Shown here: in pieces, positions 23,552 to 63,164 of the stretch
How positions within the stretch are numbered: the stretch's first letter is position 1
Layout: every line of letters starts with the position of its first letter
NCBI GenBank assembly: GCA_013420905.1
Contig: JAAXNY010000004.1
Location: forward strand, 124,001 to 188,000
Origin: Collybia mongolica
Taxonomy: Eukaryota > Basidiomycota > Agaricomycetes > Agaricales > Clitocybaceae
Direction of reading: 5' to 3'
DNA length: 64,000 bases
The notes under the pieces: generated by a model
Database searches by the model: none
Told to the model about the DNA's origin: nothing
The model's input: only the letters and a program-made list of their open reading frames with translations
Position numbers and translations under genes: made by a program

Positions 23552-25500
23552 ATGTCTTCCACTTCCACTTCCACCATGGCTTGTGCTCTGCGCTCGCCTT
23601 CCGCGCTGTCCCTCTCGCTTTCTGCCGCGATTCTGCCGACTGAGGGCCGTTCCCCCACCATGGTCTATGTGGACCAGCCGATCCCTTCCTTCTCGGACCT
23701 CCTCGAAGATGCCGAGGGCGACGTCTTCGTTGCTATGGAGCAAGGGTGGATTATCATGGCCGAGGAGCTCGCGCCCCGTATGGACCACCAAGGTCCCCTT
23801 GACCTTGATGACTTGATCGACTTTGTCGATCACTGCTCCATGCTCATCGTACGCCCATCTTTTACTTGTTAACTCCTTTTACTTATTTACTGGTCTCAGG
23901 ATGCCATCACTGGCGTGGTCCGTGGCGCGCGTTTCTCGCTGCCATATCCGGCTATCCTCCTCCTGCGCGCGCTTCACCTTCAAGTGATGCGCATCCCTGT
24001 CGACGCGCGCGAGGCTTCGTGGTCTTCCTGGCGCACGGTCATATCGACTGACCTGGGCCACAATTCCATTCTTCTGGTAAGTGACTTGTTTACTTCTTTA
24101 CTCTGCCTGCCCTTGTCAAGCTGACTACCTTTTACTTTAGGGCCAGGCTCCCACTGTGGAGCAAGTCCTGGACCAGGTGGGGTCGCGCTTCGAGCGCGAC
24201 AACGGTGAAAGTATCTTTCAGGATACTTTCCTCGTCCCTCCTCGCATGGTGGGCGCACCGCGCCGTTACCATCAGTACCGGGACAATTGGTCCGCCGCGC
24301 CCTTGCCGGCGCGCTCCCCGGTCTTGGTACCTGCGGTTCGTTTATCACTGCTTTTTATTACTTTCCTTCGGTGGTTGACTTATTTTAATAGCCCCTCAAG
24401 CGGAAGCGTAATGCTGGGTCCAAGGGAAAAGGCCGTGCGGTTCCCCAGGTATATCCTTTACTTTACGAGTTTCACATTATTGCTGACTTGATTTCAAAAT
24501 TCTAGTCCGACATGTCGCGCGCCCAGGGGACTGGCAGTGCTTCCGCGCTGCGTCCCTCGGAAGCAGGCCCAGTATGTCTCTTTCTGAAGTCATTTACGTT
24601 TACTCATCTTTATCTCCTTAGTCCTCTGGGCAGCCGCCGGTGAAGGTTGAAGTCCCTGAGCTTCGGCTCTTCGATGATGAGATCGCACGCCAGTTGGCTC
24701 AAGAGGGGTTCGCGGAGTTGTTGCCTCCCGCGGCCCCTTCTCCTCGTCGGTCGCGTAAGACCACCCGTTCTAGGGATAGGGCTCAGGCGACATGCCGCAA
24801 GCACGCGCTGGTTCCCAACCGGGAGCTGACGCCGCTACAGTCCCCTATTACCTCCCTGCTGGCTGACCTTGCGCCGCGGCGCTCTTCCGTATGTTTATTA
24901 CTACTTTATTTCTTGTTACTGATCATTTTTTTTTTACTAGGTGGACTATCCTTGCACGATGTGTGCCACCCGTGGTGACATTGAGTGCACCTTCAACGGT
25001 TGGGGTAAACCGTGCGTGGAATGCGCCACCGCCAAGAAGGGGAAGTGCAGCTTCAGCCTCACTCCCCAGAAGCGCGCTAGGCTTCGTGAGGATCTGGGGC
25101 CAATGCTTGGTGCGGGCATTTCTAGTAAGCCATTTTCTTTCTGTCTTTTTGTTTACTAATGATTTTACTTATTCTACTAGCGGTTGCTGAAGCCTATGCT
25201 CAGCTAGGCGACGCGGACTCTCTTGCCGCGGAGGTCATTCAGGCCGCTAATCGCGCGCTTGAAATGCGCAACTCCTTGTTGGCGCGCATAGTTGGCACCA
25301 TCGGTAAGTTGTACGAGGAGGAAGGCCTGGAGGGCCTTCAAAACCTCTTGCTGACTACGCCAGCCACGGAGAGCGCTCTCCTCTTCTACGCGGATTTCCA
25401 GAACCTCCCTTGGCCGCCCTTGGAGGAAGAAGCAGAGGTTGATGACGGTTCTTCGTCGTCAAGTTCCTCTTCGTCCGTGCCTGACAGCGAGGAGGAGTAG
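23552..25500 (+). CDS. Accessory gene acc1 of family A: Zn2Cys6-like protein (A1 copy, intact)
   Basis: Antisense to gag-pol, between pol and the 3' LTR. Eight exons: 23552-23848, 23900-24076, 24141-24335, 24392-24448, 24506-24571, 24622-24888, 24941-25124 and 25181-25500; 1,563 nt, 520 residues, all junctions in phase. Introns are 50-63 nt GT-AG, many with a TTTACT-like stretch before the acceptor. Residues 224-230 (PLKRKRN) look like a nuclear localisation signal. Residues 358-389 form CX2CX7CX8CX2CX7C (CTMC...CVEC...C), close to the fungal Zn2Cys6 pattern. The C-terminus is acidic (Ser-rich, then SEEE). I infer a nuclear DNA-binding regulator; the target is unknown. No retroviral domain is present. 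Family B carries a gene of matching design in the same position. Confidence 0.82.
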
Positions 25501-25872
25501 CCGCGCCGCGCCCCCCCCCCTATATTTTTTTTTTATCTACTTGTGTTTTCCCGGGCCCCTGTGCCCTTACATATTACTTATTCCCCCGCCTTTCGTTGGG
25601 CTTCAATTTTATTAATTGAAGTCCAACACATGTTTCTACATACAGTCCCCTGGACTATAAACAATACAATTGGTTTACCCGTTGTTCTATTGTCTTCATA
25701 AGAAAGCTTCCGCCCTTGCACCGGCTACTTAAGTTATAAATAGTACAGTTTAATTCTGGTGCAATTCTCTCGATCATTAAGACCGTGGTGCAATCACTGA
25801 CTTTTTATAGACAATCTATTTCAATCCTTGTAACCTTGGTAGGTTTTTCCAAATCGATTTTGCTTATACCCA

Positions 25873-25902
25873 TCTCCCCCTCAACACTGACAACAACTGT
25901 CC
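25873..25902 (-). other. Internal duplicate of the PPT motif, A1
   Basis: TCTCCCCC, 15 bases, ACTGTCC: same blocks and spacing as at the LTR edge (23,100-23,129), but placed between acc1 and acc2. Confidence 0.6.
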
Positions 25903-26085
25903 CAGTTGTCATGCGGACACTGCCGCGCTCCACATGAATTTTTACGGAGCTCCTTTTTCAATTGGGCCCAGCATTTCAATTAGGCACGCGTCTCGGACCT
26001 GTTCAGTTGAAATGTATAGATTTTTCTGGGGGTAGAGCGCGCGCAATGAATGAGAGACTGGGTAGCGCTTCTCTAGTCCTAGAGG

Positions 26086-26093
26086 TATAAAAA
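26086..26093 (+). promoter_or_regulatory. TATA box of acc2 (A1)
   Basis: TATAAAAA about 105 bp upstream of the acc2 ATG; also present in A2 at 35,791. It implies acc2 has its own promoter rather than relying on an LTR. Confidence 0.6.
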
Positions 26094-26191
26094 GGGGATT
26101 GGCTGTGCTTTCTGTCCAAAGACATCGCCCGACTCTATTATACTCTCTTTACATCGTTCTGTATCGAAGAACCAATTTCCTCTGCATCATT

Positions 26192-27574
26192 ATGACTAGC
26201 CTCCCCAACTATCAAGACATCGAGAACTTCAAGATGGTCCAAGCTCTGTGGAACACCTTTCAAGCTCGTTTATCGATGGACACCCTTGTTGAACAAAGGG
26301 TCAGCGTCCGGAAGTTAGGTGAAACCGCGGTACACTTTTTACCAATTTAACTTTTATACGCCGTTATCGTAACCAACTTTTACAATTTACAGCTACTCCT
26401 GACTGAGTCCAAAATGGTTTTGACGGAGCGGTCCTGGCAGAATGTTATCTTTGGCGTCCGTAAAGCATTCCAGGGACTACAACATGTATACCCCGAGTTA
26501 CTTCAAGAGCCCGTCTACCGCAACATTGTGACTCTTACTGCCGCTATTCACCGTCACCGTGAAAAGCTCCGCACTGAGCACCTGTCTCAAACCGCGGTGC
26601 GTGCTTTTTACCTCATCTTGTACTGTACTGTTCTTTTTAAACCATGGTTTTCTGGTACTAGGTCCCTGCTACTGGTGGTGAAGCGGATGGTACCACTATT
26701 CCAGGCGAGGTCATTGCTGGCGGTGAATATGACGGTGACATTGAAATGTCTGGTACTGACTCGGTATGTTTCTTTTTAGCTACCGCGCTGTCAGTGCGCG
26801 ACATACTCAATGGTGTCTCTTCTTTACTCAAGAATATGGTCATTGATTCCGGCGCTACGGCTAGTGCTGCTGTCTCTGGATCAGTGACTAGTCGTCTCCT
26901 TAGTGAAGGACCAATCACCCGTAGCCGCAAGGAGAAGGAGAACATTAAGGTTCCCCGTGTCAAAAGGACTAAGGCTGAAAAGGCTGCCATCAAGGTACCC
27001 ATTCTTGTTTTTGCTCTGTCTATTACTTTGTTTCTTATTCCTACAGGACGGTAAGCGTTCCGAGCTCAATCGCGGCAGCACTCTTCGTCCCAAAAAGCGT
27101 ACAAGGCAGGACACCCCGGATGAAGATCCAAAGGCATCTGCTGAGGGTACGTTTTCTAATAATAGATGGTTCTAAATTTATACCGACTGTGCATCAGATA
27201 CTCGTGTCTTTATTGACTTCCGTCCCTCCAAGGAGCACGATGTAGTCTTAGCGCGGGCGCGCTTGATTGCAGACGCGGGCGATCCCATGTCGCACACCAA
27301 GCAAGCCCTCGGTAGGATGCTCTTAAACTACCGCGCTGAGTTGGAGGAGATCAGTCATACAGTGTCCTTCTTATTGAAGCGTCGTGATGCCACTATGGAC
27401 GAGGTTACTCGCCTCAACGGTCTAATGAACGAGGCCGCTCTGGAGGGAGGCTCTGACGAGGCTGCCACTGCGAGCGCTACCGAAGTCCATGACCAGGATG
27501 ACAATGATAAGGAGGAGGTAGCTCCGGCTGACTTGCCCTTGCCCGAGGTTGAAGACGACTTCATATCTGCTTGA
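26192..27574 (+). CDS. Accessory gene acc2 of family A (A1 copy)
   Basis: Unknown protein, antisense to pol and convergent with it (146 bp apart). Exons 26192-26329, 26393-26596, 26662-26763, 26833-26994, 27047-27146 and 27198-27574 give 360 residues. A 69-nt intron (26,764-26,832) is a multiple of three without stops, so retention would give 383 residues. Features seen: a basic stretch with RSRKEKENIKV and RVKRTKAEK, a second basic patch RPKKRTRQ (possible nuclear signals), a helical C-terminal half including LEEISHTVSFLLKRRDATMD, and an acidic end. No enzymatic motif and no cysteine cluster. It may act with the acc1 product; that is inference from co-location only. The A2 copy is nearly identical. 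Confidence 0.75.
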
Positions 27575-27720
27575 GGACAGTCCAATTAACTTCCTCCTGA
27601 GTTATGGTGTCCCTCCCCACGCTCCTTTGTATTACTGTCTTTACTCGGCTTAACGCTGTCCTTACTACTTCGCTTAGTTGCTTATACTGTCTTTACTGCT
27701 TCTGTTTCCATACTGATTTA

Positions 27721-28733
27721 TCACCTATGCAACTTCCGGTGTGACATAGTAGTTTGTGGTAGCGCTGGCGCTATCCCCTCCTCAGTGTTCTCACTAGAGC
27801 TTGACTCTGAATTGGACTGATCCAATTGGACTCTGTCAAACGTATAGTCACGCTCCTTGTAAACTTGCCTATTAGCGGGATCTTTCGATTCCACTAAAGC
27901 ATTTAGTGTTTCGCTAGAGATGTCTATTAGATCTTGCAGATTATCCGGCAGTTCAATTGTACTCCTAGCAAAATAGGGAATAACCCTAAACGCCCCCACT
28001 TTATGTTGCCACACCGATCCATCCATTTCGCAAACAATATAGGCTCCCCCGCGGTTTCGTCTAAGGACTATCATTGGTCCCAGGTACTGTGGCTTCAGCT
28101 TTTTATCGAGCGAACTTTCGACCTCGGTATTTCTAACTAGTACTAAACTTCCTGGTTTGAAATCATAGTCTCTGATGGTCGCGCTGTGATCCTTCTCATA
28201 CTGTAATAGTCTCCTTCGTTTTTCTATATTGATACATTTCCTCATATCGGCCACATGCTGGACGTGCTTAGCTAGAGCCTGCGCTCTAAATCCAATGAGT
28301 TCCTCTGTAGTCAATATTTTTCCTGGTAACTTTACTAACCAAGTGGCTTCGATAATATCTAATGGTAAGGTTGGGTGCGCGCCCGTAATCATAAAATAGG
28401 GGGAGCAACCCGTCCCTTTCCGTATAGTAATTGTGTCAGCCCACATTACATGGTGGAAGAAGTAGTACCACTTCTTTACATCACCACCTGTAGCTTTGAA
28501 GACAGCTTGACGCACATCCCAATGTGCGCGCTCGGCGATCCCATTTCCTTTGGAATTGTATGGTGATATACTTATTCCTGTAATACCATACTTGGATTCC
28601 AGCCACGCTTTGGCTGCGACAAAGGCAGGACCATTATCCGTTACAATTTCCGTTAGGGAACCCCATCTACAAATTACTTCTTCAAACAGCCACCTTCCCA
28701 AGGTCTTGCCATCCTCAGATTTGAGGGGCGCGC
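27721..28733 (-). CDS. Pol C-terminal part of A1 (integrase), split by B1
   Basis: Continues the reading frame begun at 54,597-57,607. It starts within the integrase core (APLKSEDG...), with the second catalytic Asp in VTDNGPAF and the Glu in NGIAERAH. The C-terminal domain has the YLGPMIV block found downstream of gypsy integrases; no chromodomain is visible. It ends at 27,721. The GCGC at 28,730-28,733 is the target duplication made by B1. Confidence 0.88.
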
Positions 28734-29736
28734 TGACAAGCCTAGCTCGGCGCTAGGCATGTTATTCCTCGTTCAATCGTATTTCGCGCTCACAAGTATA
28801 CCCATTTCCTACTCTCATTCGCGCGCATCTACACACGGCTTACTTCGCGCGCAATCCCTCATTCTCAATCTTACTTCGCGACTCTCATACACGCTTATTT
28901 CGCAAACTTCTCTCTTACTTCGGGATCTTCGGGCTTGACCTACTTCGCGCGCTTTAACTCTGTTCCGTCTCGGGGACCCCGGGAACGCCACTCCACAAGT
29001 CGGTCGCGGAAGTCCTTTCCGTCTCAACGACCCTGCTCCGTTTCCGATCAAGGATTGACATCCCGGCGTTCAGTTAATTAGTGATCTCCGTTCTAGGCAC
29101 GCTCGCCTTATCTCTTAGGTATTCCTTAGTTCGCCGTCGCGCGAGTTTATCTTAATTTAGTAGTTTGTATCTCGACTCACCTTTCTCCTACTTGAAAATT
29201 TTACCTTACATCTCCATTTAGATTCCATGTAGTTAGTATAAAAACCTCTGTACTTTACTACTAGAGAATCAGGACACTTTCCCCTCCTCTCTACATCTAA
29301 ACTTCGCTCTCAAACGCTTCTGTGCATACTCAACAAGTTCACAACTGCTCCGACTTATTGACACGAAGTTCGCGCACGCCTGTATACGTTTCGTTCGTGA
29401 ACTACAGGGCAGCACCTTAATCGTTGTCGTCTTAAGCTCGCGACTTTGTGCGCGGAGAATCTCGAACCTCTAAGTCCGCATTTCAGTTGCGCGTTGCGCA
29501 CTTTGCGTCTTTTAGTGTCGAAGTCTCACAACTCGTTTGGTTTGTTAGTCACTAAGCGTACCTCTTACTTCGCGCGTGTTACGCACTCCCCTTGGTAATT
29601 CTCCGTACTCCGAACTGTGCACTGATATCTTCTCCCTCCTTTTGATACAGAAAACACCCCTCACTTTCTAGGAGAGGACCTGCGAGATAAGAACGCGCAC
29701 TTAGTTCTCACATCTCGCACAGACTCGTAACTGTCA
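28734..29736 (+). repeat. 5' LTR of B1
   Basis: TGACAAGCC...AACTGTCA; TATAAAAA at 29,237-29,244; rich in TTACTTCGCG-type motifs. It differs from the 3' LTR at four positions, all CpG transitions. Confidence 0.9.
29237..29244 (+). promoter_or_regulatory. TATA box in the B LTR
   Basis: TATAAAAA, the probable start signal of the genomic RNA about 30 bp downstream. The equivalent in the right LTR is at 54,097-54,104. Confidence 0.6.
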
Positions 29737-29739
29737 ATT

Positions 29740-29759
29740 TGGAGCCCACCGCGAGGGTT
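29740..29759 (+). other. Primer binding site of B1
   Basis: TGGAGCCCACCGCGAGGGT three bases after the LTR end; TGG pairs with a tRNA CCA tail. Family A has the identical site. The tRNA species was not identified. Confidence 0.75.
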
Positions 29760-30121
29760 TTCTAATCATTTCAGGCGAGGAATCAGTCACACCAACTCGG
29801 AATCTACGAGAAGAAATCCACAGGGTTGTATCCGATCCAGTTATCTCTCAGCAACGTCGCGAATCGCGAACATCACAAACTCACCCACACTCTGTAGTTC
29901 GTTCGCGCGATTGAACCCTTTATTCGCAACTTGAGTTTTCCATTCCTTCTTTACACACCCTGACGACTCCTGATCCCTCGCAAGACTCAGACTGGTCTAC
30001 AGACAAGACAGTCACGCCGATTGAATCACCTCCAAACCTCAACATCTCCGACTTCTCAACTCCCTCATCCATATCTCCGTTTTCGACCTCTCCATTTATC
30101 ACTCCCTCATTCACTCCAGCC

Positions 30122-31594
30122 ATGTCTATTCCATTCGGAAAGTCCAACGCCGACGTACCGAAGCAGGAACCTGAAGGATTGTATTTGGGTGGCGGCTATC
30201 TCTCATCTCTGCACATTCCGGAAGCAACAGCGGCGTACTTCTCGGGAAGCGTTCCGACCACAGTTGAGGCACAGATTCCACTTCCCCAATCCCCGCGATC
30301 ACCCAGTCCTCCGCTACCGCAAACTGGCCCTGCAGCCGCGAACAGTGCCACCGCTCCACAACCAGCCACGTTCAATGTGTTCCGACAACCCGCACTTGCA
30401 CAACAAGCGGCTCCACGCGTTCAGGTCCCCGCAGTAACTCAGCACGTGGCAGGATACCCAGCCTATATGCCCACGCGAACTAGCTCCACCGCTCCGCAGT
30501 TTGATGGGCAGGCACACTCTCTCAAACGGTTCTTTCAGGACTTCGAGCATCTTGCGCAACTCGTCGGACTGAGCAACCAACAGAAGAAGGAAGACATTCT
30601 CCGCTACATCGACGTTCCGACCGCACTGCTCTGGCAGAAGGAACCAGAGTACGCGGACACTTCCAAAACCTTTGACGATTTTAAAACCGCGATCGCCAAA
30701 CTCTATCCAGGATCTTCAATCGAGGATGCCTACCGTTTCACAGACCTCGACGAGCTCATTGCCAACACTCAAGCTCAGGGGATCCGATCTACAGGAAGTT
30801 ATGGTGCGTATTATCGCACATTCAAGGGAATTGTCGATCAACTCGCCAGCAAAGACCGCATTGGGAAGCGGGAGATTCAAGACAAGTTCCTCAGGGGTTT
30901 ACCTTCGGACATTGCGGCGAAAACAATATTCCGTTTACAGATTCGTTTCCCCAACCAGCACGTCGACGAGGCTTTTCCCCTGGCCGAATTATATAGAGCC
31001 GGACTTGGCGCAGTTGATGGAACTTCGGCGATCGATGCAGGAAATCCCTTCTCTCTTGCGGCGGCATTTATGCCCGCAAATCCGTTCAACGCTTCGGGCG
31101 CTGCGGGTCAGCAATTCCAACAACCCAACCCTGCGCCTCAACCAGTTCAGGTCCCATTCAACAACCCTTATCTTGCGCACATCGTTCCTCCCGCAAACAC
31201 TAGACCGCCCGCTGCAATCTATCAACAGCCAGCTGCTCAAACGTATCAAGCACCCCCTGCTCAGGTCGCACAAGCACCTGCTCCAGCCCCAGCCCCCGCG
31301 CCAGCTGCGCCCGAAGCCTATCAGCTGTTACCTCGTGCGCCAGGCATCGTCGCGTCTGACTTGAATACGTTCGCAACCACCATTGCCACCACCATGAGAA
31401 ACGAGTTCGCGACATCTATCCGAAACGAACTCTTGCCGTTCCTTCAACAACAACAGCAACAACAACGAGGTGGCAATTACAACTACAATGCGCAACAAGG
31501 CCGATTCACCTGCAACTTCTGTGGACAAGACGGACACGGCATTCGCAACTGCAACACGGTTCAGCGCTACATCAATGAGAACCGACTACGTCGC
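30122..31594 (+). CDS. Gag of B1, N-terminal part (interrupted by A2)
   Basis: Structural nucleocapsid precursor. From ATG at 30,122: a Pro/Ala/Gln-rich N-terminus, a capsid-like helical region (FDGQAHSLKRFFQDFEHL, then LLWQKEPEY, and FLRGLPSDI), a second Pro/Ala/Gln linker, a poly-Gln run, and a CCHC zinc knuckle CNFCGQDGHGIRNC near the end. The frame runs straight into the A2 LTR. After excision of A2 and one TCGC copy it continues in frame at 45,814. Confidence 0.88.
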
Positions 31595-32810
31595 TGAAAG
31601 GGGGCTCCTGGGCTATAAGTGCGCTGATGCTATGAAATGTAATCCCTTACACACACACACCAAACTTAACAATCAACACACGAACAGTAGGAATCGCCTG
31701 TTTTGAGTTCGGGTTCAAGTGCTTAGAAGCACTAAGCTTTGAATAGTACTAGCCAAAGCCCTTTCCAATGATCTCTCGACGGGTTCGATTTAGACAAAAG
31801 CTTCAACACAGGTTCAAAAACCTGCTAGGTATATTTATAATATCTCTCGATCCAATAGACTGAGTACCAAGTGTACGTTCAATTATTAGTGATCCCAAGC
31901 GGATCTATAAGTCCAAGCGACTTATCAAACAATACAGTGCCAAGTGCACTAAGGCCAAGTGCCTAGTAATTCCAACGGACAATACGGTACTAAGTTCCAA
32001 GTGAACTAAGTTTCTTTAATTCTGTGGTTCTCCAATCAATTCCAATCAAGACACGTTGAAGCAATCTGATCCTTAATTCGGGCACGCAATAGTGTTTTAA
32101 CAAATGTGATTTGTATACTCTATAGTCGCGCGAAGTGGGGGCAAGATTCCTTGCCTTAGCGCTACTCATCTACAGTCTATTTATAATGTACAAACTAAAT
32201 ATCATATGGAATTGTAAATTTTACACGGAACCGCGCTCCCGCGCGCCAAGAATCTGTATTCAATACTGACGCGTCTACTACAACTTGGCGCGCGCGCCAT
32301 GCGTGCCAATTATGTCGTTTACTGGTTACTTATCAAATATTGAAAGAGCTGGCTAAACTCTTATCAAGTCCCGACCGCGCGCTCTGTTATTTAAAACAGC
32401 GCGGCACTGTCGTTTACTCCTCCTGATTGTCCTGGTTGCTATTCACGGTGTCCCGTCACTTCCGGTAGTTAACACCAAGTACCCCTGACTAGGATCGGGT
32501 TGTGCAAGTCCCGAATTTACAATTACTTCTCCTATTAATGATGATCCCCGGACTAATGATATCATACTACAATGGTTACTTATGAACTAAGACACCGAGG
32601 TTGTAACTGGGCATGGTGAATAGGACTAATAATAGACCGTACTCATAGTCCTCTGTACTGATAGTGTATTATCCATTAGACTAGTTCACTCTGATTAGCC
32701 GTCTCGGAGCTCGACTCTAATCCTTTATTACTGCTTACTTGGTTATTAGAAATGACACTAATAGCCTTACTTGTTGACTTTATAAGTGCAAACAATTTCG
32801 GGCCCTATCA
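31595..32810 (-). repeat. 3' LTR of A2
   Basis: TGAAAGGGGG...CCCTATCA. Two differences from the partner LTR, both C to T at CpG. Confidence 0.92.
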
Positions 32811-32840
32811 TCTCCCCCATACCACAAATGTAGACTGTCC
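32811..32840 (-). other. Polypurine tract and GGACAGT motif of A2
   Basis: Plus strand TCTCCCCC at 32,811-32,818, then 15 bases, then ACTGTCC. It abuts the 3' LTR as expected for a plus-strand primer. Confidence 0.7.
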
Positions 32841-33261
32841 TCAGTCTCTCTTTGCCGGCAGGTTGGTCCAATACTTCGGGTCTGCACGCGTCTAATCTTT
32901 CAGTACAATGTTACAACGGTTCCGCTTTTAGACAGGTAGGCGCGCGATGTTGGGATCGAGCCCAGAGGTTTACTTCCCATCAGGATCGTGACAGCTATAT
33001 ACGTCTCCTGAGAGAGTACTTGACATTCGGACATCGCTTTACAGATATTTCAGTCATCTGGACATTTTTCTCGTTATGTTTCTGACACTTCAGCAAGAGA
33101 TCGGTACTCCTGTTTGTTCTTTAGAGCTTCGCAATGCAGGGTTGTGCGTTTTAAAAAGCTCGCGTCCTTGCTAAGTTTTAGACAATTTGGACTTTATAGC
33201 CCATTTCTAAATCTCTTTGCTATCTGCATCGCTCAAACGCCCCGACTCTTTTCAAACAGAA

Positions 33262-35192: not shown

Positions 35193-35572
35193 CCGCGCCG
35201 CGCCCCCCCCCACCTACGTTTTTTTTTTTTTTCTATATGTGTTTTCCCGGGCCCCTGGCCCTTTTATTACTGCTACCTAAGTTCCCCCGCCTTTCGTTGG
35301 GCTTCAATTCTTTAATTGAAGTCCAACACATGTCTTATATACAGTCCCTCGGACTATAAACAATGCTATTGATTTGGCTGTGGTTCTATTGTCTTCATAA
35401 GAAAGCTTCCGCCCTTGCCCCGGCTACTTAAGTTATAAATAGTACGGTTTAATTCTGGTGCAATTCTCTCGATCATTAAAAACCGTGGCGCGATCACTGA
35501 CTTTTTATAGACAATCTATTTCAATCCTTGTAACCTTGGTAGGTTTTTCCAATTCGATTTTGCTTATACCCA

Positions 35573-35602
35573 TCTCCCCCTCAACACTGATAACAACTGT
35601 CC
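35573..35602 (-). other. Internal duplicate of the PPT motif, A2
   Basis: TCTCCCCC, 15 bases, ACTGTCC, between acc1 and acc2; same arrangement as at the LTR edge. Confidence 0.6.
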
Positions 35603-37274: not shown

Positions 37275-37420
37275 GGGTAGTCCAATTAACTTCCTCCTTA
37301 GTTATGGTGTCCCTCCCCACGCTCCTTTGTATTACTGTCTTTACTCGGTTTAACACTGTCCTTACTACTTAGCTTCGTTGCTTACACTGTCTTTACTGCT
37401 TCTGTTTTCATACTGATTTA

Positions 37421-44591: not shown

Positions 44592-44593
44592 GA

Positions 44594-45809: not shown

Positions 45810-45813
45810 TCGC

Positions 45814-51022: not shown

Positions 51023-51192
51023 TTATTTATTTCTCTTTCCCATTCTCTCCCATTCTCCCCTTTTAATTCGCCTCTTTACTTCGCAAATTTCTATGGACTC
51101 TCTCATTCCCCACCCCTACTCAGTTTACATCGTCTCTCATCAATTGCGCACTTACTAGATTCTATTTCCTTTCCCTCATGCCTTCTTCCTGG

Positions 51193-51220
51193 GGACAGTC
51201 AGTATTCAGTCTAGGGGAGG
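51193..51220 (+). other. Internal duplicate of the PPT motif, B1
   Basis: GGACAGTCAGTATTCAGT followed by CTAGGGGAGG. It matches the terminal motif (53,565-53,593) at nearly every position but lies between pol and the accessory gene. Confidence 0.7.
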
Positions 51221-51396
51221 AGGCCCCCCCCCCTTTTGTGCCTTATTCATTTCATTTTCTTTTCACTCTACCTTACTTCGCGATCTTTCTTTACTAATTC
51301 ACACAAGGCAAGAACGAAAATCTGCGCATTGCTATTGCGCGCGACTCAAGATATACACAACGAGATGTAAAAACAAAAAATCTTCCAAACCCCCTT

Positions 51397-53070: not shown

Positions 53071-53564
53071 TTTATTGATAAGATTAGATCACGGAGGGGC
53101 GGGCGTTGACTCGGTGTTTGGAAGTGGAGTGGGAATGAGAGAGAAAAGAACGGGTGAGAAATTGCCATGTTGACTTTCAGGAACCAACCAACACATGACC
53201 GTGACGTGTCTCCCCTTTTGGGCCTTGACCACGCGTCAACGATCGACACTTCTCCCGCAACACGGAGCGTCCGCCGGATCAAATCTATTTTTGTTGCCTT
53301 CATCAGAATCCTCTAAGTCCAACTTCGATCATTCGCTTACCTTCGCATGTTCCTTACTTCGCGAGCATCTCTGCTTACTTCGCCATGACCCCCTGCCAGC
53401 ATCCCCTACTTCGCACACGCAATTGCAAGACTGAAATACAGGAATCCCATTGTAGTCGTCGCCTTTGCACCCTTCAAAATCTCCGAGCTCCGATTCACAT
53501 TTTGCCACACCGTTACCTCATGAATTTCACCCAAAAACGTTTTCACCGACATCCGATTGACTGT

Positions 53565-53593
53565 GGACAGTCAATATTACAGTCCAGGGGAGG
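53565..53593 (+). other. Polypurine tract and GGACAGT motif of B1
   Basis: GGACAGTCAATATTACAGT then CCAGGGGAGG, directly abutting the 3' LTR. Confidence 0.7.
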
Positions 53594-54596
53594 TGACAAG
53601 CCTAGCTCGGCGCTAGGCATGTTATTCCTCGTTCAATCGTATTTCGCGCTCACAAGTATACCCATTTCCTACTCTCATTCGCGCGCATCTACACACGGCT
53701 TACTTCACGCGCAATCCCTCATTCTCAATCTTACTTCGCGACTCTCATACACGCTTATTTCGCAAACTTCTCTCTTACTTCGGGATCTTCGGGCTTGACC
53801 TACTTCGCGCGCTTTAACTCTGTTCCGTCTCGGGGACCCCGGGAACGCCACTCCACAAGTCGGTCGCGGAAGTCCTTTCCGTCTCAACGACCCTGCTCCG
53901 TTTCCGATCAAGGATTGACATCCCGGCGTTCAGTTAATTAGTGATCTCCGTTCTAGGCACGCTCGCCTTATCTCTTAGGTATTCCTTAGTTCGCCGTCGC
54001 GCGAGTTTATCTTAATTTAGTAGTTTGTATCTCGACTCACCTTTCTCCTACTTGAAAATTTTACCTTACATCTCCATTTAGATTCCATGTAGTTAGTATA
54101 AAAACCTCTGTACTTTACTACTAGAGAATCAGGACACTTTCCCCTCCTCTCTACATCTAAACTTCGCTCTCAAACGCTTCTGTGCATACTCAACAAGTTC
54201 ACAACTGCTCCGACTTATTGACACGAAGTTCGCGCACGCCTGTATACGTTTCGTTCGCGAACTACAGGGCAGCACCTTAATCGTTGTCGTCTTAAGCTCG
54301 CGACTTTGTGCGCGGAGAATCTCGAACCTCTAAGTCCGCATTTCAGTTGCGCGTTGCGCACTTTGCGTCTTTTAGTGTTGAAGTCTCACAACTCGTTTGG
54401 TTTGTTAGTCACTAAGCGTACCTCTTACTTCGCGCGTGTTACGCACTCCCCTTGGTAATTCTCCGTACTCCGAACTGTGCACTGATATCTTCTCCCTCCT
54501 TTTGATACAGAAAACACCCCTCACTTTCTAGGAGAGGACCTGCGAGATAAGAACGCGCACTTAGTTCTCACATCTCGCACGGACTCGTAACTGTCA
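53594..54596 (+). repeat. 3' LTR of B1
   Basis: 1,003 bp; followed by GCGC (54,597-54,600), the second copy of the target duplication, and then by A1 pol sequence. Confidence 0.92.
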
Positions 54597-57500
54597 GCGC
54601 CTTCCATCCACGAAGACAGCGCACATCTTCCTTGGACAATGTATTTATAACCGTTAGACGATGGGCTCATATACATGGTGTCTGCATGCAATACTTGGAA
54701 TATAGACGGCGTGTGGGTTATGACAGGAGGGATTCTCAACAAAGTTAAGAGCCTTGTCTGACAGATGTGACATGACTTCACATACCATGATACATCGCGT
54801 TCCATTTCTGGCCACCAAAATCTTTTATCTATTAAGGATTTTGTTGCATAGAAACCCCTATGTCCAACAGAATCGTGAGACGCCTTCATCATATATGTCC
54901 GGTGATTTTTATCAACAACAAGCTGGTGCGCGCTATCGATATTTTTCCTATACATCCTGCCTTCTGGATCCAAAAAGAAATTAGACGCCTGCCTTGCAAA
55001 CTTTAGGTAGGCGCGATCCGTCATTCCTTTTGGTCTCTTTTGTGGTCTTTTTAACCATTCTTTTATTAAAGGTAGGTTTTTATCCTGTTCCTGCGCCGTA
55101 GGTGTTCGTTTAGACTCGTCATATACTTCCCTTACATTAGGGTCATATTTAAACTTTTCATCGGGTATGACAGTAGTATTTACAAGTTGCTTTAGATAAG
55201 CTTCTCTTTGAATACCGAACCGTCCTAAACCTAAGTGCTGTTTTACTTCTCCAATAAATGCTGCTTCACCAGCCCAGGCATTGTTTACTTCAACTTCAAA
55301 ATCAGAGATTTCCTTCGCAAGTTGGAATAAATATCCGCCGCGCGTGTCGATCTCCTCTTTAAAATCTGACAGCTCCAAAGGGTCATCCAATCCTTCCGTT
55401 GGGTTGATAAACCTTAAAGGACCTGAGGGTTCGTCGTAACCATCGTCTGGGTCCGGGTAGACAGGATCCCCTAGCCGCGCGTCTCGTCTTGACAGACCAT
55501 CTGGGCCAAAGCCTTTACCAGCTTTATGAACCAGAGTAAAGTGGAACATAAGTATCCTATCAATCCACCTATTTACCGTTGCATTAGGTCCTAGACTTGG
55601 GTTTGATAACATCCCCTTAATGTACTTTGCATCCGTTTCCACTACCAAATTTCGTACTCCAATAAACCAATAATAACATGCCATTAGAACTCTCATCAAT
55701 CCGAATAGCTCTCGTTTGGGTTGTGAGAAGCGCGCTTCGCGCTCATTCAGAGTTATCGAGTCAAATCTAGCATAGTGCTTTCTTCCAGGTATATCAGGGT
55801 CTTCCTGATAGATATAGTAGCCTACGGCTTTCCATGACGTATCTACTGACAATACCACTGGCGTATTCCAGGTGTAATTAATTGGACGGAGCGCGGGGCT
55901 ATTTTTAAGTGCGTCTAACAATAGCTGCTGCGCTTCTTCTTGCTCAGGCCCCCATATCCAAGGTTCACTACTTCTAGTTAACTTTTGAATTGGTTGGCCT
56001 ATACGGGCGAAGTCTTTAATGAAATTCCTGCATACACCAATAGTTCCCATGTAAGCGCGTACTTCACTGACATCTTTGCATGGTCCCCATCTTTCAACTA
56101 CACCGATTCTATCAGTAGTAGGTTTTCGTCCTTCATAGGTACATCTATGTCCTACCACTAGAATTTCACTTGCGCATAACATAGACTTATATCCTGAAAA
56201 TGTTCCTCCAGAATACTTCATTCTCTGTACGACGCGATTTACATTTTGCATATGTTCCCAGAAGAAGCGCCTAACACCTGGAGCACCAGGTAGCTCTTCT
56301 TCTGTTCCGTCCGGCAGTTCGTAGCGCGTTGCTGGACCGCGCACGGGTACATCATCAATGTAGGGTATTGTGACATGTGGTACCTCATCCTGTAGGATGT
56401 ATGTGACATCATCATGAAATATTGGAACTGAATTCGTCCATCCCATAGGAAGTGTTACTAGTCTCAGCGCGCCAAACGGTGTTTGGAACGTGGTTAGATC
56501 ACGCGAGGTTTCTGCTAAAGGCCTCTCATCGTATCCTACATATAGATCCATCATTCCGCCACAAGCGCGCCCTGCGAAGTGTTCTGCTAGTTCTTCGGTA
56601 GCGGGTGGTAAGCCCGAGTGCGCTATTGTGACTGCATTCAGCGGTTCTAGACTATGTACAATTCTAAGCTTCTTTCCTGGGCCTTTCTTTAATACGGTAA
56701 ACCATCTAGACCTATATGATGAATTGGATCTCTCATAGACTCCTGCATCAATTTTAGTTTTGATGATTTTACAAACATCTTCATAGATCCCTGGTGGGAT
56801 TCTAATGTTCCTTTCTGTCCACGGCGTATGTGGGACTACTGGTATCTCTACGGGAGGAAAATATTCCTTCTTAAAGCTACCGCGCTCACTATCATTCCAG
56901 GCAAAACCATCATTATGTTTGCACATAAAGTCGTGGATTATATCCATCTCTTTAGGTTTTAAGAAGCTCTCTTCTTCGTGTACCCTTTGGAATTCCGCGC
57001 GCCTTTCCTCAGTATACCTTCCAGTTGGTTTAAACAGAGGTGGGTTAGGCGTTAGAACTGGTAGGGCCGCTAAAGGGTCACCCTTTATATCTCTGATAAT
57101 TCTAAATTTATCAGGCAGGTCCGCCAGTGTTGGTTTTGTTTTCAAATGTACTGGTTTATACTTCTTTCCTACTAACTGATCCATGGGCTCAATATTACAC
57201 TTTTCACTTGTTGCCATTCCAAGACCGCGCTCGTTGGTGCCAATTTGCCACTGCTTTAATTTACTTAAAGCTTTATCGATCATGGGCTGTTCTTGAGCGT
57301 ATGTCATAGGTCTAGTGGGTGTACTTGCTGGGTCACTGCTGTTCTGCTCGTAGTTTATTACTGGTCCATCGCGCTCATCTACGGAAGCCAAGTACGTGGC
57401 TAGTAATTCGCGTTCAGGTACTGTACTATTCATGTTCACATCACTTCTAGACAAAAAGACATCTCTAAGTTCTTTGTGACCAAAATTCCGTTTATCAGTA

Positions 57501-57607
57501 GGGTGTCTATAACCCGTTATAATAAAGTTTCCGTTCTCATCTTCAGCAATTTCTACGGCTAGCTCTCCTTGATCACTTTGGATTAATTCATCGAAGGCCG
57601 AAAATCC
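54597..57607 (-). CDS. Pol N-terminal part of A1 (RT, RNase H, start of integrase)
   Basis: Same protein as 37,421-41,440. Entered through GGATTTT at 57,601-57,607. The RT has [14 protein letters not shown] intact. RNase H and the integrase zinc finger are open. The frame reaches SSWMEGA at the B1 insertion and continues at 28,733. It was therefore intact when B1 arrived. Confidence 0.9.
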
Positions 57608-58806
57608 TGCTCCGGTTGTCTTTTCAACAGCTTAGGCGGTGATCCCTTTGCATGGGTAGGGATAGTACACCTTCGTCCCGTGTTAGGGTCCGTGATAGTG
57701 ACTACTTGTCCCCCGTCCCGAGCATTTTTGATCTGACTTTCCATGAGTGTATCAAATGGTCTCCCGAGCAATACTTTGTATGCGGGTGAATTTATGATAT
57801 GTACTTGGAGGTAGATGGCCATGTCATTAAACAAGAAAGGAACATTGCGCGCTAATCCCGCTGTTTTCTCAACTTGTTTATTAGCACTCTGCATGTGTAT
57901 GACAACGTCCGGATCCCATGAAATATCTAAGTCTAAAGCCGTTTGTTTAGCCATTGATACTATTTGGGATCCCCCATCTAATAAAGATTCCTCCGTTCCT
58001 GCCCCATTTATTACTGGATATACTGCGCACAAAGAGGCCGATTCTTTTGCTACATACAACTGTTTGGGCTCTTCCCCAGCTGGTAAAGATTCTAAATACT
58101 GTAGGACTGGGTCTCCGCATATTATAGATCCCTTAGGTATTCCGCCGCGGTCATACTCCGAGATGAAGAAAGACTGGAATGGGATTGACTCTACTGGTAG
58201 CGCGTCATGCCGTAAGTAGTTATCATCAAGTTCCCAGTCCCCTCCAAAGGGTAAGACGTCTTCCTCATCTATTCCGTTTATTTGCAAGTTAGCGTCCCTT
58301 TGGGTGAGGGACTTACGTCTGGCAGTTACAATATTCTTTATCCCATCTCTAATGGTTTTTGACGAGCCCATTAACTCTCCCGTGGTCAATGTGATAGGGT
58401 TGTCTAACACTTTAGCAATTATATCGCCACCTTTTAATTTTACTTCTATCGGGGACTTAGTTTCATAAGTCGGACCGCGCTTAGTGTTAAAATTAGGTAG
58501 CGGATCAACTGGTTCAGGGTTGCGTTCCGTTCTCCGGGGTATGTAGGGTACCACGGGCACATCGATGTAGGGTAATTCTTTTCGTACTGGAGACTTTACT
58601 GATGGTTCAACAAATTTTACTTTCTTTTTCCTAGGAGACGGCGCTACCAACTCCTCCTCGCTACTATCCCGACTACTCTCCGAATCGTTACTTTCTTGAT
58701 GACTATTTCTGTTTTTATTTCGGTCCTCTGGCTGTCTCTTGGAACGCGACCTAGTCGTAGGTCTAGCGTGTTCCTTAGCCTCCTTCATCGGACCTAATTG
58801 AAACCC
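57583..58806 (-). CDS. Protease ORF of A1
   Basis: 401-residue counterpart of the A2 protease ORF, entered via GGGTTTC at 58,800-58,806; [11 protein letters not shown] intact. A few substitutions relative to A2; no lesion seen. Confidence 0.85.
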   Translation of the reverse strand, partial: GFQLGPMKEAKEHARPTTRSRSKRQPEDRNKNRNSHQESNDSESSRDSSEEELVAPSPRKKKVKFVEPSVKSPVRKELPYIDVPVVPYIPRRTERNPEPVDPLPNFNTKRGPTYETKSPIEVKLKGGDIIAKVLDNPITLTTGELMGSSKTIRDGIKNIVTARRKSLTQRDANLQINGIDEEDVLPFGGDWELDDNYLRHDALPVESIPFQSFFISEYDRGGIPKGSIICGDPVLQYLESLPAGEEPKQLYVAKESASLCAVYPVINGAGTEESLLDGGSQIVSMAKQTALDLDISWDPDVVIHMQSANKQVEKTAGLARNVPFLFNDMAIYLQVHIINSPAYKVLLGRPFDTLMESQIKNARDGGQVVTITDPNTGRRCTIPTHAKGSPPKLLKRQPEQDFRPSMN

Positions 58807-59891
58807 GACTCTTTAACCTTGTTTTGGTTATTGAGTTCTGCTACCTGCCCTAATAAAGTACTCATTTGTGCTTGTAAGGCTACTATGTCAGGATTCGGCG
58901 CACTCTTTGCCGTAGGATTATAGTTATTATTTATATATTCCTGTTTCTGCATCTGAGGCGGTACTGGCAACGCAGTTTGCGCGCCCTGTTGTCCTAACAT
59001 TTGTTGCGCTTGAAATTGTGCCATTTGTGCCATTATGGCTTTCAAGGTTCCAATGTCATTACTATTGTCTACTGCATTATGTGACTGCATAACGGACAAT
59101 ACTCCTGGAGCGGGTCCTTCCGTGACATCTCCGTAATAAAGGGCCGCTACCTTCTCTGCAGTTGCTGTTACGGATGTTATAAACGATCTATTTGTGTTTG
59201 GAATATTCATGTTGGCTACACCTTCAGAAATGCTGATTGCAGTTGCTATAACTTCCTCCAGATCGTACTGATCCCCTTTTCGTCGCGCGAGCGCGGCGGC
59301 TTCGGCAATAGTATTAGGATCTGCTCGGTTGTTTGTAGCAATGGCTTGTCCTGCCTGTGTAGCATTAGACTGATTATTCCCTAGCAGGGTTAGCCTTCCT
59401 TGTACTTGGGATCTGAAGACTTCGTCTAGACACCCCAAGAACTTGGTAACTAATTCTCGGTTAGAGATAATAGGTGGCCTAACTCCCAAGAGTTTAATAG
59501 ATTCTGCTTTGAATTCACGCTTCAGCTTTTTCAGCGCGGCCTCATCGGTTACTCCAATACGTGGGTTGGCGCGACACACTGCTTCTAACTTGGCCACTGA
59601 TCCTTCTACTTGATCAAGTGCTTCCGGATAACTAGAGATCAACTCTGTCTTGAAATCCGTCCAAGTGCCTGTCTTATAGTGGTCTAATGCCCTCCACTCA
59701 TTCTCTGATTGTAGGTCTGCGTATTTTCCTAACATTAACTTCTTTTCTTCATCATTTGTAATGTTACACTCCTTCCATAGGACCTCCATTCGCTCCAGAA
59801 ACCGGATTAAACCCGTGGGCTCTTTTCCTTTGAATACTGGTGCATCACGGATGCCTGGTTGGGGCATATATTTACGAGGGGGTTCAGTCAT
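58794..59891 (-). CDS. Gag of A1 with internal deletion (no zinc knuckle)
   Basis: Starts MTEPPRKYMPQPG at 59,891 as in A2, but about 137 residues are missing near 59,155, between SFITSVTATA and KVAALYYGD. The loss is in frame and removes the central helical region and the CCHC knuckle. The C-terminal shift site is kept. B2 sits upstream of the start codon (59,964). Confidence 0.82.
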   Translation of the reverse strand: MTEPPRKYMPQPGIRDAPVFKGKEPTGLIRFLERMEVLWKECNITNDEEKKLMLGKYADLQSENEWRALDHYKTGTWTDFKTELISSYPEALDQVEGSVAKLEAVCRANPRIGVTDEAALKKLKREFKAESIKLLGVRPPIISNRELVTKFLGCLDEVFRSQVQGRLTLLGNNQSNATQAGQAIATNNRADPNTIAEAAALARRKGDQYDLEEVIATAISISEGVANMNIPNTNRSFITSVTATAEKVAALYYGDVTEGPAPGVLSVMQSHNAVDNSNDIGTLKAIMAQMAQFQAQQMLGQQGAQTALPVPPQMQKQEYINNNYNPTAKSAPNPDIVALQAQMSTLLGQVAELNNQNKVKESGFN

Positions 59892-59964
59892 GATTACTGA
59901 ACGGTTCTGAGTAGCTAACGAGTTCGGGTTTACTACTGGGTTTACTACGGACAATCTTCCGCGC

Positions 59965-60967
59965 TGACAGTTACGAGTCCGTGCGAGATGTGAGAACTAA
60001 GTGCGCGTTCTTATCTCGCAGGTCCTCTCCTAGAAAGTGAGGGGTGTTTTCTGTATCAAAAGGAGGGAGAAGATATCAGTGCACAGTTCGGAGTACGGAG
60101 AATTACCAAGGGGAGTGCGTAACACGCGCGAAGTAAGAGGTACGCTTAGTGACTAACAAACCAAACGAGTTGTGAGACTTCGACACTAAAAGACGCAAAG
60201 TGCGCAACGCGCAACTGAAATGCGGACTTAGAGGTTCGGGATTCTCCGCGCACAAAGTCGCGAGCTTAAGACGACAACGATTAAGGTGCTGCCCTGTAGT
60301 TCGCGAACGAAACGTATACAGGCGTGCGCGAACTTCGTGTCAATAAGTCGGAGCAGTTGTGAACTTGTTGAGTATGCACAGAAGCGTTTGAGAGCGAAGT
60401 TTAGATGTAGAGAGGAGGGGAAAGTGTCCTGATTCTCTAGTAGTAAAGTACAGAGGTTTTTATACTAACTACATGGAATCTAAATGGAGATGTAAGGTAA
60501 AATTTTCAAGTAGGAGAAAGGTGAGTCGAGATACAAACTACTAAATTAAGATAAACTCGCGCGACGGCGAACTAAGGAATACCTAAGAGATAAGGCGAGC
60601 GTGCCTAGAACGGAGATCACTAATTAACTGAACGCCGGGATGTCAATCCTTGATCGGAAACGGAGCAGGGTCGTTGAGACGGAAAGGACTTCCGCGACCG
60701 ACTTGTGGAGTGGCGTTCCCGGGGTCCCCGAGACGGAACAGAGTTAAAGCGCGCGAAGTAGGTCAAGCCCGAAGATCCCGAAGTAAGAGAGAAGTTTGCG
60801 AAATAAGCGTGTATGAGAGTCGCGAAGTAAGATTGAGAATGAGGGATTGCGCGTGAAGTAAGCCGTGTGTAGATGCGCGCGAATGAGAGTAGGAAATGGG
60901 TATACTTGTGAGCGCGAAATACGATTGAACGAGGAATAACATGCCTAGCGCCGAGCTAGGCTTGTCA
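59965..60967 (-). repeat. 3' LTR of B2
   Basis: 1,003 bp, same ends as the B1 LTRs, with only a few differences from either B1 LTR. Confidence 0.92.
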
Positions 60968-60996
60968 CCTCCCCTGGACTGTAATATTGACTGTCC
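60968..60996 (-). other. Polypurine tract and GGACAGT motif of B2
   Basis: Inverted copy of 53,565-53,593. The internal duplicate is at 63,341-63,368. Confidence 0.7.
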
Positions 60997-61490
60997 ACAG
61001 TCAATCGGATGTCGGTGAAAACGTTTTTGGGTGAAATTCATGAGGTAACGGTGTGGCAAAATGTGAATCGGAGCTCGGAGATTTTGAAGGGTGCAAAGGC
61101 GACGACTACAATGGGATTCCTGTATTTCAGTCTTGCAATTGCGTGTGCGAAGTAGGGGATGCTGGCAGGGGGTCATGGCGAAGTAAGCAGAGATGCTCGC
61201 GAAGTAAGGAACATGCGAAGGTAAGCGAATGATCGAAGTTGGACTTAGAGGATTCTGATGAAGGCAACAAAAATAGATTTGATCCGGCGGACGCTCCGTG
61301 TTGCGGGAGAAGTGTCGATCGTTGACGCGTGGTCAAGGCCCAAAAGGGGAGACACGTCACGGTCATGTGTTGGTTGGTTCCTGAAAGTCAACATGGCAAT
61401 TTCTCACCCGTTCTTTTCTCTCTCATTCCCACTCCACTTCCAAACACCGAGTCAACGCCCGCCCCTCCGTGATCTAATCTTATCAATAAA

Positions 61491-63164
61491 ATGTCTTCCT
61501 CAACTTCTAGTACTCCCGTTCCTGACCTCCCGACAACGTTGGGTTACCTTGACGAAACCCTGAAGCCCCAGTTGGCCCGGATCGACGCCCTCCCCGCTGT
61601 TTTGAGTGCTGAGGATGGTCTGAAATTCGCGAGGCGTTTCGCACGCGCCCAGGTGAGTGAAATCGTGTTTTTGTGAACTTCTTCTCCGCCGTAGTCTTCC
61701 TTCAACGGCTCAAAGCTCGTTTTCCTAACTAACTGCCGTGTTTTTCGAATGTAGGGTGAAATCGACCGTTTGCACCGTACCAAACACGAATTCGAGGAGC
61801 CTACGAAAGGTTTTGTCGAACGCCTCGACCAATTCATTCGGAGGAACATCCAGCCTGGGTGGGCGACGATCGCTGATGCTTACCGGGATTGGTTGGACTG
61901 GAACACGACCCCCGAGCGCGAGATGGGGGCGCCCCTTGTAGTGCCTTCACCTGGTCCCTCAGAACGGCGCGATTCAACAACTCGAGGACCAGAGCAAACA
62001 GCCCCGAAAGTGGTGGCAGAGCAGGACGACGTAGGAGTGAGTGCGACGCCGAAGGTCGCAGGGAAGAAAGGTAGTACCAGGGTCAAGAGCAAAGCGGTGG
62101 TGGAGAGTGACGAAGATGATGAAGAACCGGCGGAAACCCCGACAAGGCCCAAACCTTGTCCGGTTTTCAAGAAAAAAGGTGTGTTGTTTGATGGCATAGT
62201 TCTTACTGCAAGGCCAAAAACGACTCGAGCAGAGTCCTCCTCTGCTGTGGCTCCGCGAGACACATCGCCCGAGAACTCCAAACCTGTAACAAAGGTGGCG
62301 GGGAAGAAACGGAAAACTGCGGCAAAAGGGGATGAAGCGGCGCGAGAAGTGAAGCGGAGGAGGGGTCGCGGGGTCACTAAGGCGTACACTGCGTACTTGG
62401 GAGAAGCCACGCAGTTGTCCGACGTGGTTCATTCTTTTGTTTTGTCTGTCGATTCGTGTTGAACGTCCATCTCCCAGGTCTACAAACATCGTTGCGAGGG
62501 ATGTCGCGGGTCCAACCTAAAGGTCTGCGTCGGGGCGAAGGGGGAGAACAGATGCCATGGGTGCGCCTTCAAACGCAAGCCCTGTGTTGCGAGAGCTCAG
62601 AAATTTGCGCCGCGATTCCCGGACGCCAAGGATGGAGACGGATTCGATACCTTGGAAGGTTTCTATGTGGATGATGAGGATGTGGAAGTAGAAGTTGTGA
62701 AGGGGAAGACGAAGGAAGTTGACGAAGATGACGACGAGGATGAGGATGCAGCGGGGTCAGACGAAGAAGAAAGGTCGGACGACATCGAGGAGATCTCCCC
62801 GACAATCGTCATCCCTCCTACGAAGAAAACTACGCCCGTGGTCAAAGAAGAACCCCCTGTTCGTCGAAGTCCAAATCCGCCGCGCCGGGCGCGCACCAGT
62901 ACTGACGTCAAACTACCTGTGATGTCCGCCGCTGGAAAGGTTTACAAGAGAGGTGGAAAGGTAGCAACTGGGGCATCTCAATCGAACTCGCAGGCCAAGG
63001 CCCCTACCTTGGACATCTCAAACGCACGCGGAGTTGCAGGAATGCAGGCCAAGCACCTGGGGGACGAGATCCAGCGTCTCGAGACGTTGGTGGACGTCCA
63101 CCTTGCCATGATTGCGACTCTCCGATCCCAAAAGGCCGAGTTGGACGCCGCTGCGAAGAAGTAG
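61491..63164 (+). CDS. Accessory gene of family B: Zn2Cys6-like protein (B2 copy)
   Basis: Exons 61491-61652, 61755-62423 and 62478-63164; 505 residues, apparently identical to the B1 copy at 51,397-53,070. The cysteine cluster is encoded at the start of exon 3. Transcribed toward, and convergent with, B2 pol. Preservation in two copies fits recent amplification, so identity alone does not prove selection. Confidence 0.8.

What the first reader, a model, noticed from the sequence alone, without database searches (positions are those of the whole stretch)
23552..63164. Spliced antisense Zn-cluster genes carried by two different gypsy families
Families A and B differ in LTR, gag and pol, yet both place an intron-containing gene antisense to gag-pol, between pol and the 3' LTR. 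Each encodes a ~510-residue protein with a CX2CX7CX8CX2CX6-7C cluster (A: residues 358-389 of acc1; B: residues 283-313), basic nuclear-type patches and an acidic stretch. Family A adds a second antisense gene. The introns argue for expression as a separate mRNA from the opposite strand, since genomic RNA cannot be spliced in that sense. This suggests a retrotransposon-borne nuclear regulator, perhaps of LTR activity, silencing or integration site.
Basis: partly seen in the sequence, partly recalled or inferred. Interest (0 to 1): 0.88.

Follow-up and report, generated by a model that had tools for sequence, protein, structure and literature searches.

The report
Antisense spliced genes in fungal retrotransposons
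Three related jumping-gene families in this fungal genome each carry, on the opposite strand, an intron-containing gene for a cysteine-cluster protein; in the commonest family selection keeps it intact, so the element probably uses it, but its exact job is unproven.

Summary
The window is a nest of young Ty3/Gypsy elements (A, B) in an unnamed 46 Mb genome. Each carries an intron-containing gene antisense to gag-pol, between pol and 3' LTR, encoding a six-cysteine-cluster protein; A adds a second antisense gene. In 30 distinct A copies, variants shared between copies avoid amino-acid change (N58 S96 against N96 S56 expected; 0 of 2000 simulations), introns gain indels while exons hardly do, and 29 of 30 spliced frames are intact. 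Inside the small B and C families N/S is close to neutral. A and B are one pol clade (RT about 57% identical), not unrelated. A third family, C, has 77-81% RT identity to B but only about 24% identity in the antisense protein, with both introns and all six cysteines kept: retained, yet fast-evolving. Antisense genes at this place are a known kind (plant Grande and Retand, Botrytis Boty brtn); HTLV-1 HBZ is the functional parallel. The multi-exon cysteine-cluster version was not found in my literature searches. A nuclear regulator of the element is the best reading, untested: no RNA data, no Pfam or PDB match, useless structure model.

The parts
23552..25500 (+). A copy 1, antisense gene 1: exons 23552-23848, 23900-24076, 24141-24335, 24392-24448, 24506-24571, 24622-24888, 24941-25124, 25181-25500; 520 aa; six-Cys cluster 24953-25048
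26192..27574 (+). A copy 1, antisense gene 2: exons 26192-26329, 26393-26596, 26662-26763, 26833-26994, 27047-27146, 27198-27574; 360 aa
33262..35192 (+). A copy 2, antisense gene 1, broken by a 14-nt deletion in exon 3; cluster 34645-34740 intact
35897..37274 (+). A copy 2, antisense gene 2, intact
51397..53070 (-). B copy 1, antisense gene: exons 53070-52909, 52806-52135, 52083-51397; 506 aa; cluster 51976-52068
61491..63164 (+). B copy 2 (inverted), antisense gene: exons 61491-61652, 61755-62426, 62478-63164; 506 aa; cluster 62493-62585
31595..45809 (-). Complete A element (copy 2): LTRs 31595-32810 and 44594-45809; gag 44486-42627, protease region 42645-41416, pol 41464-37421
28734..54596 (+). 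B element (copy 1), interrupted by A copy 2: LTRs 28734-29736 and 53594-54596; gag from 29915; pol frames to 51022
21884..28733 (-). A element (copy 1), 3' part with 3' LTR from 21884 and both antisense genes; interrupted by B copy 1
54597..59964 (-). A element (copy 1), rest of pol, protease region and gag
59965..64000 (-). B element (copy 2), inverted: 3' LTR 59965-60967 and its 3' region; runs off the window
32834..32845 (-). ACTGNGGACAGT stem-loop beside the polypurine tract, A copy 2 (copy 1: 23123-23134)
53560..53571 (+). ACTGNGGACAGT stem-loop beside the polypurine tract, B copy 1 (copy 2: 60990-61001, - strand)
51188..51220 (+). Second copy of the B hairpin plus purine tract, between pol and the antisense gene

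Best explanation
A clade of Ty3/Gypsy elements carries an intron-containing gene in antisense between pol and the 3' LTR, probably gained before the A and B/C branches split. It is read from a promoter near the 3' LTR, spliced, and makes a protein with a six-cysteine, probably zinc-binding cluster between basic and acidic stretches. The protein most likely enters the nucleus and acts for the element on its DNA or chromatin, tuning sense transcription or resisting silencing, much as HTLV-1 HBZ acts for its provirus. Shown: the genes, their splice architecture, their presence in the copies examined, coding constraint in A, fast divergence between B and C. Inferred: transcription, splicing, zinc binding, nuclear location, regulation. 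The introns persist because the replicating genomic RNA carries them in the wrong sense for splicing.
For: Shared variants in 30 A copies: N58 S96 stop 0 against null N96.3 S55.7 stop 2.0, ratio 0.35, 0 of 2000 simulations; 29 of 30 intact. Gene 2 dN/dS 0.30 between the two window copies. Six Cys in 31 of 32 A, 6 of 6 B and 5 of 5 C copies. Layout: 50 of 58 gene 1 starts have gene 2 downstream and 43 of 58 an RT on the opposite strand beyond. B gene at 7 of 7 B loci; C gene at 6 of 7 C loci, one interrupted. B and C share two phase-0 introns at matching places. Basic and acidic runs in B and C. Parallels with suggested nuclear or DNA-binding roles: Grande, Retand, HBZ.
Against: No RNA or protein data. 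No Pfam domain over cut-off, no PDB relative, structure model pLDDT 50. N/S inside B 0.93 and inside C 0.95 of neutral; 3 of 6 B and 4 of 5 C frames intact. Homology of the A genes to the B and C genes is not supported by BLAST (best E 0.031). The A gene 1 product has one short basic run only and no acidic run of four. Three of 58 gene 1 starts have an RT on the same strand within 3-12 kb, read as nesting but not checked.
Confidence: 0.5

Rival explanations
1. The protein is a cofactor of retrotransposition itself (nuclear entry of the pre-integration complex, integration-site choice, or handling of RNA or cDNA), not a regulator of transcription.
For: Coding constraint in A; a cluster with basic residues could bind nucleic acid; a role of this sort is proposed for plant antisense ORFs (passages).
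Against: A gene with its own introns and opposite strand is an odd way to make a particle protein; divergence between B and C is far greater than for the enzymes.
Confidence: 0.2
2. The protein counters a host defence (DNA methylation, small-RNA silencing or heterochromatin), which drives its fast change.
For: Antisense protein about 24% identical between B and C against 77-81% for RT, 71-76% for integrase and 47-50% for gag.
Against: Fast change alone is also seen with relaxed constraint; N/S inside B and C is near neutral, not above it.
Confidence: 0.15
3. The antisense transcript, not a protein, is what matters, for example through double-stranded RNA.
For: Antisense RNA as regulator is proposed for other elements (passage).
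Against: The constraint in A is on amino acids and frame, and exons differ from introns in indels.
Confidence: 0.05
4. A captured host gene or passenger without function for the element.
For: Introns as in a host gene; N/S near neutral inside B and C.
Against: Carried in three families; constraint in A; genome searches with the B and C genes returned only matches at B and C element loci, no host paralogue.
Confidence: 0.06

Closest known systems
Antisense additional ORFs between pol and 3' LTR of plant Ty3/Gypsy elements (Grande gene23, RIRE2, Retand, PvRetro13; passages of PMC7264820 and PMC11963269)
   Same: Position, orientation, presence in most copies, suggested nuclear or DNA-binding product, function unknown
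   Different: Those papers' passages name SMC and TRP28 domains, not a six-Cys cluster; the word intron does not occur in either text; hosts are plants
Boty antisense gene brtn of Botrytis cinerea (Zhao 2011, known to me only as cited)
   Different: Sequence not compared; Boty pol is described with a chromodomain, and none was found in A or B pol
HBZ of HTLV-1 (passages of PMC10186651)
   Same: Spliced antisense gene at the 3' end of a provirus; nuclear regulator of 5' LTR transcription
   Different: bZIP protein of a retrovirus; no sequence relation claimed; promoter and function untested here
Fungal Zn(2)-Cys(6) binuclear cluster (PF00172)
   Same: Six cysteines in the order C-X2-C, C, C-X2-C, C with basic residues in the second half
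   Different: First loop is X7 instead of the family's X6 (spacing recalled); best Pfam score 13.4 bits against a cut-off of 21, for C only

Membership tests
Ty3/Gypsy LTR retrotransposon (the carriers) | pol with RT-RNase H before integrase | tested here: met
   A pol: RNase H-like at 560-693, integrase zinc-binding at 906-960, rve at 979-1070
Ty3/Gypsy LTR retrotransposon (the carriers) | direct LTRs, target duplication, polypurine tract | tested here: met
   1216-nt and 1003-nt LTRs; 4-base duplications TCGC and GCGC read by eye; purine tracts
Ty3/Gypsy LTR retrotransposon (the carriers) | tRNA primer-binding site | not tested
   not examined
Antisense additional ORF between pol and 3' LTR | opposite strand to gag-pol, between pol and 3' LTR | tested here: met
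Antisense additional ORF between pol and 3' LTR | present in most copies of the family | tested here: met
   7 of 7 B loci, 6 of 7 C loci with one interrupted; in A 43 of 58 gene 1 starts linked to a listed RT, a lower bound
Antisense additional ORF between pol and 3' LTR | transcribed from its own antisense promoter | not testable with these tools
   no RNA data
Fungal Zn(2)-Cys(6) cluster (PF00172) | Pfam score over the curated cut-off | tested here: not met
   A and B clusters: no PF00172 match; C: E 0.087, 13.4 bits, cut-off 21
Fungal Zn(2)-Cys(6) cluster (PF00172) | CX2CX6C first half (spacing recalled) | tested here: not met
   CX2CX7C in A, B and C
Fungal Zn(2)-Cys(6) cluster (PF00172) | binuclear zinc fold | tested here: inconclusive
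   AlphaFold of the B/C cluster region: mean pLDDT 50, pTM 0.24
HBZ-type antisense regulator (as a way of working) | spliced antisense gene near the 3' LTR | tested here: met
   intron structure inferred from DNA only
HBZ-type antisense regulator (as a way of working) | nuclear protein that lowers 5' LTR transcription | not testable with these tools
   needs bench work
Retand TRP28 (PF04195) | TRP28 domain | tested here: not met
   no such match for A gene 1, A gene 2 or B or for C exons 2 and 3
Boty brtn | sequence similarity to BRTN | not tested
   no brtn sequence was fetched

The most novel reading that the evidence does not exclude
A Gypsy clade that reaches across mushrooms (pol relatives named from Armillaria ostoyae and Lentinula edodes) carries an ancient spliced antisense gene whose six-cysteine protein evolves at arms-race speed and decides whether the element is transcribed or silenced: the HBZ strategy reached independently in a fungal retrotransposon. 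In family B the gene even lies between two copies of the element's 3'-terminal hairpin and purine tract, a possible trace of how it was acquired.
Probability: 0.3. Interest if true: 0.78.

Novelty: new variant of a known kind. Interest (0 to 1): 0.57.

Why it matters
[quoted passage not shown] This system gives handles for a test: tens of copies in one genome, clear splice sites, six invariant cysteines, and two close families (B, C) whose antisense proteins have diverged far more than their enzymes. If the protein proves to be an element-encoded nuclear regulator, it would be a fungal parallel to HBZ and a way to study how a retrotransposon controls its own expression or resists silencing.

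Tried and rejected
Independent acquisition by unrelated elements: rejected, one pol clade. Sense-strand gypsy ORF: rejected, the genes lie beyond pol on the other strand. Host paralogue: none among the matches with the B or C gene; the A searches were capped and not screened for this. PDB by sequence, cluster regions only: chance-level matches. AlphaFold: unusable, so no fold search was made. Pol relatives in viral contigs: none confirmed. Doubled hairpin plus purine tract: significant in B only (0 of 300 shuffles); in A 78 of 300 and in C 82 of 300 shuffles reach the score, so not claimed for A or C; an earlier run with a truncated module gave the same picture. Selection: a first run mixed strands and was discarded; one search fixed this and gave N245 S187 X14 in 31 distinct copies; L043, with a misaligned 3' end, was then dropped for the final count. 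Three older A copies (L070-L072) are decayed and were left out of the selection counts. The alignment of A, B and C clusters misplaced cysteines and was not used.
Full report
SETTING. From 21.9 kb on it is a nest of young Ty3/Gypsy elements: A copy 1 (minus strand) is interrupted by B copy 1 (plus), which is interrupted by the complete A copy 2 (31595-45809, minus); an inverted second B copy interrupts the gag of A copy 1 at 59965 and runs off the window. Four-base target duplications (TCGC, GCGC) and near-identical LTRs (2 of 1216 sites differ in A copy 2, 4 of 1003 in B copy 1) mark recent insertions.

THE GENES. Between pol and the 3' LTR, on the strand opposite to gag-pol, A has two genes and B one. 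A gene 1: 8 exons, 520 aa. A gene 2: 6 exons, 360 aa. B: 3 exons, 506 aa. Introns are 50-102 nt and GT-AG; 6 of 7 in A gene 1 and 4 of 5 in A gene 2 are in phase 0. The clusters are CX2CX7CX8CX2CX7C (A, residues 358-389) and CX2CX7CX8CX2CX6C (B, 284-314); the general pattern occurs in no other stop-free frame of the window.

COPIES AND LAYOUT. I took 58 matches to the start of gene 1 (of 189 matches; 82 of 430 candidates scored; shorter exon-1 matches left out). Of 58, 50 have gene 2 downstream on the same strand, 43 have an RT beyond it on the opposite strand, 41 have both, and 3 have an RT on the same strand within 3-12 kb; the gene 2 and RT lists were themselves capped, so the first three are lower bounds. 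Of 92 gene 2 last exons 60 have an opposite-strand RT 1-4.5 kb beyond. The B gene is at 7 of 7 B loci known by RT. RT matches reveal a third family, C, 77-81% identical to B, at 7 loci. Beyond its pol an antisense gene of 3 exons and 677 aa was read in L061; it is at 6 of 7 C loci, one of them, by its two separated matches, interrupted. The seventh (L062) has a Tc1/mariner-like transposase there instead. One region each of three other Gypsy families (L058-L060) has no six-Cys pattern in any frame and no comparable gene by ORF reading; antisense ORFs of other kinds do occur there, and short exons are hard to see, so this is a weak control.

SELECTION IN A. Thirty distinct copies of gene 1 (one of 31, L043, dropped): 1 exon indel in 1563 nt against 9 intron indels in 386 nt; 29 of 30 frames intact. 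Variants shared by two or more copies, which mostly passed through transposition: N58 S96 stop 0 against a context-matched null of N96.3 S55.7 stop 2.0, ratio 0.35, 0 of 2000 simulations. Variants private to one copy: N67 S51, ratio 0.73, 103 of 2000 simulations. All variants: N125 S147, ratio 0.48, 0 of 2000. With L043 kept, the shared-variant ratio is 0.37. Copies are related by descent, so the simulation counts are indicative. Between the two window copies dN/dS is 0.30 for gene 2, 0.046 for the 5' part of pol and 0.18 for the protease region: the antisense gene is constrained, but less than pol.

SELECTION IN B AND C. Inside B (6 copies): N39 S29 stop 1, ratio 0.93, 3 of 6 intact. Inside C (5 copies): N86 S64 stop 1, ratio 0.95, 4 of 5 intact. 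Shared variants are few (B N5 S8, C N11 S12; ratios 0.51 and 0.67, not significant). Taken alone these do not show constraint. Between B and C both introns lie at matching places in phase 0, the six cysteines are kept (third loop X7 in C, X8 in B), and long open frames persist at 24% identity (BLAST E 3e-13, no composition correction). RT is 77-81% identical, integrase 71-76%, gag 47-50%. The gene is retained but moves faster than the other coding parts compared.

A AGAINST B AND C. BLAST does not join the A genes to B or C (best E 0.031). In favour of common descent: same place and strand, same six-Cys order with an X7 first loop, and in all three a phase-0 intron four or five residues before the first Cys with a Tyr between. 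Homology of A gene 1 with B and C is likely, not shown; for gene 2 there is no evidence.

A TERMINAL SIGNAL. The exact motif ACTGNGGACAGT occurs four times in the window, each time beside the polypurine tract of a 3' LTR (A copies 1 and 2, B copies 1 and 2); with up to two mismatches there are 24 matches against 15.0 expected, reached by 1 of 100 shuffles. Exact, it is in 28 of the 30 A loci L028-L057 and in none of L058-L069; with its purine tract it is letter-identical in 27 of 30 A loci. The minimum-energy folds show a stem-loop at the outer site of A and B, not of C. In B a second copy with purine tract lies between pol and the antisense gene (score 43, null maximum 31, 0 of 300); in A and C the best inner matches are within chance. 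It may mark how the gene was acquired or a second plus-strand start; neither was tested.

DATABASES. No Pfam domain over cut-off in any antisense product, no PDB relative of the cluster regions, no homologue of the B protein in a database of 5.8 billion sequences (in one search only the 7994 candidates sharing most words were scored). The same database gave 1251 relatives of A pol at E 1e-20 or better, up to 88% identical; of the 120 listed, one is named from Armillaria ostoyae and one from Lentinula edodes, and most bear no organism. The B protein is therefore either fast-evolving or hidden by its introns from gene predictors; I cannot tell which.

LITERATURE. [quoted passage not shown]). One fungal case, brtn of Boty, is cited (passages; the original was not read). 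HBZ of HTLV-1 is a spliced antisense nuclear regulator (passages of PMC10186651). The listings held no paper that by title or abstract start deals with spliced cysteine-cluster antisense genes in fungal Gypsy elements; the library holds open-licence papers only.

VERDICT. A real accessory gene system, functional-looking in family A, and a new variant of a known kind. The nuclear-regulator reading is the most likely of several, at about one in two.

Noticed in passing
window 53560-53571, 51188-51220, 32834-32845, 23123-23134: A stem-loop motif ACTGNGGACAGT sits beside the polypurine tract in A and B; B has a second hairpin plus purine tract downstream of pol, possibly a doubled 3' end or a second plus-strand start.
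   Followed up: partly
window 50561-54600 and 59961-64000: Two B copies in inverted orientation, 99.95% identical over at least 4040 nt with 5360 nt between the arms, a large near-perfect inverted repeat made by nested insertion.
   Followed up: partly
L070, L071, L072: Older A copies are decayed, with many Arg-to-His, Cys or Gln changes by eye, as C-to-T loss at CpG would give; suggests methylation or a RIP-like process on these elements.
   Followed up: no
L058:385-1500: In another Gypsy family a 371-aa sense ORF with CCHC-like motifs follows pol, an unusual place for a gag-like protein.
   Followed up: no
L062:631-1659: A Tc1/mariner-like transposase (DDE_3, HTH_Tnp_Tc3_2) lies between inverted repeats of about 230 nt where one C copy should have its antisense gene.
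   Followed up: partly
window 15517-17703: Two adjacent frames on the minus strand with weak, below-cut-off DDE_3 transposase matches; probably another old transposon.
   Followed up: no
window 1-1316 and 11528-12843: A diverged direct repeat of about 1.3 kb (76% identical), 11.5 kb apart, with inverted repeats between 7.8-8.4 kb and 14.0-15.1 kb; nature unknown.
   Followed up: no
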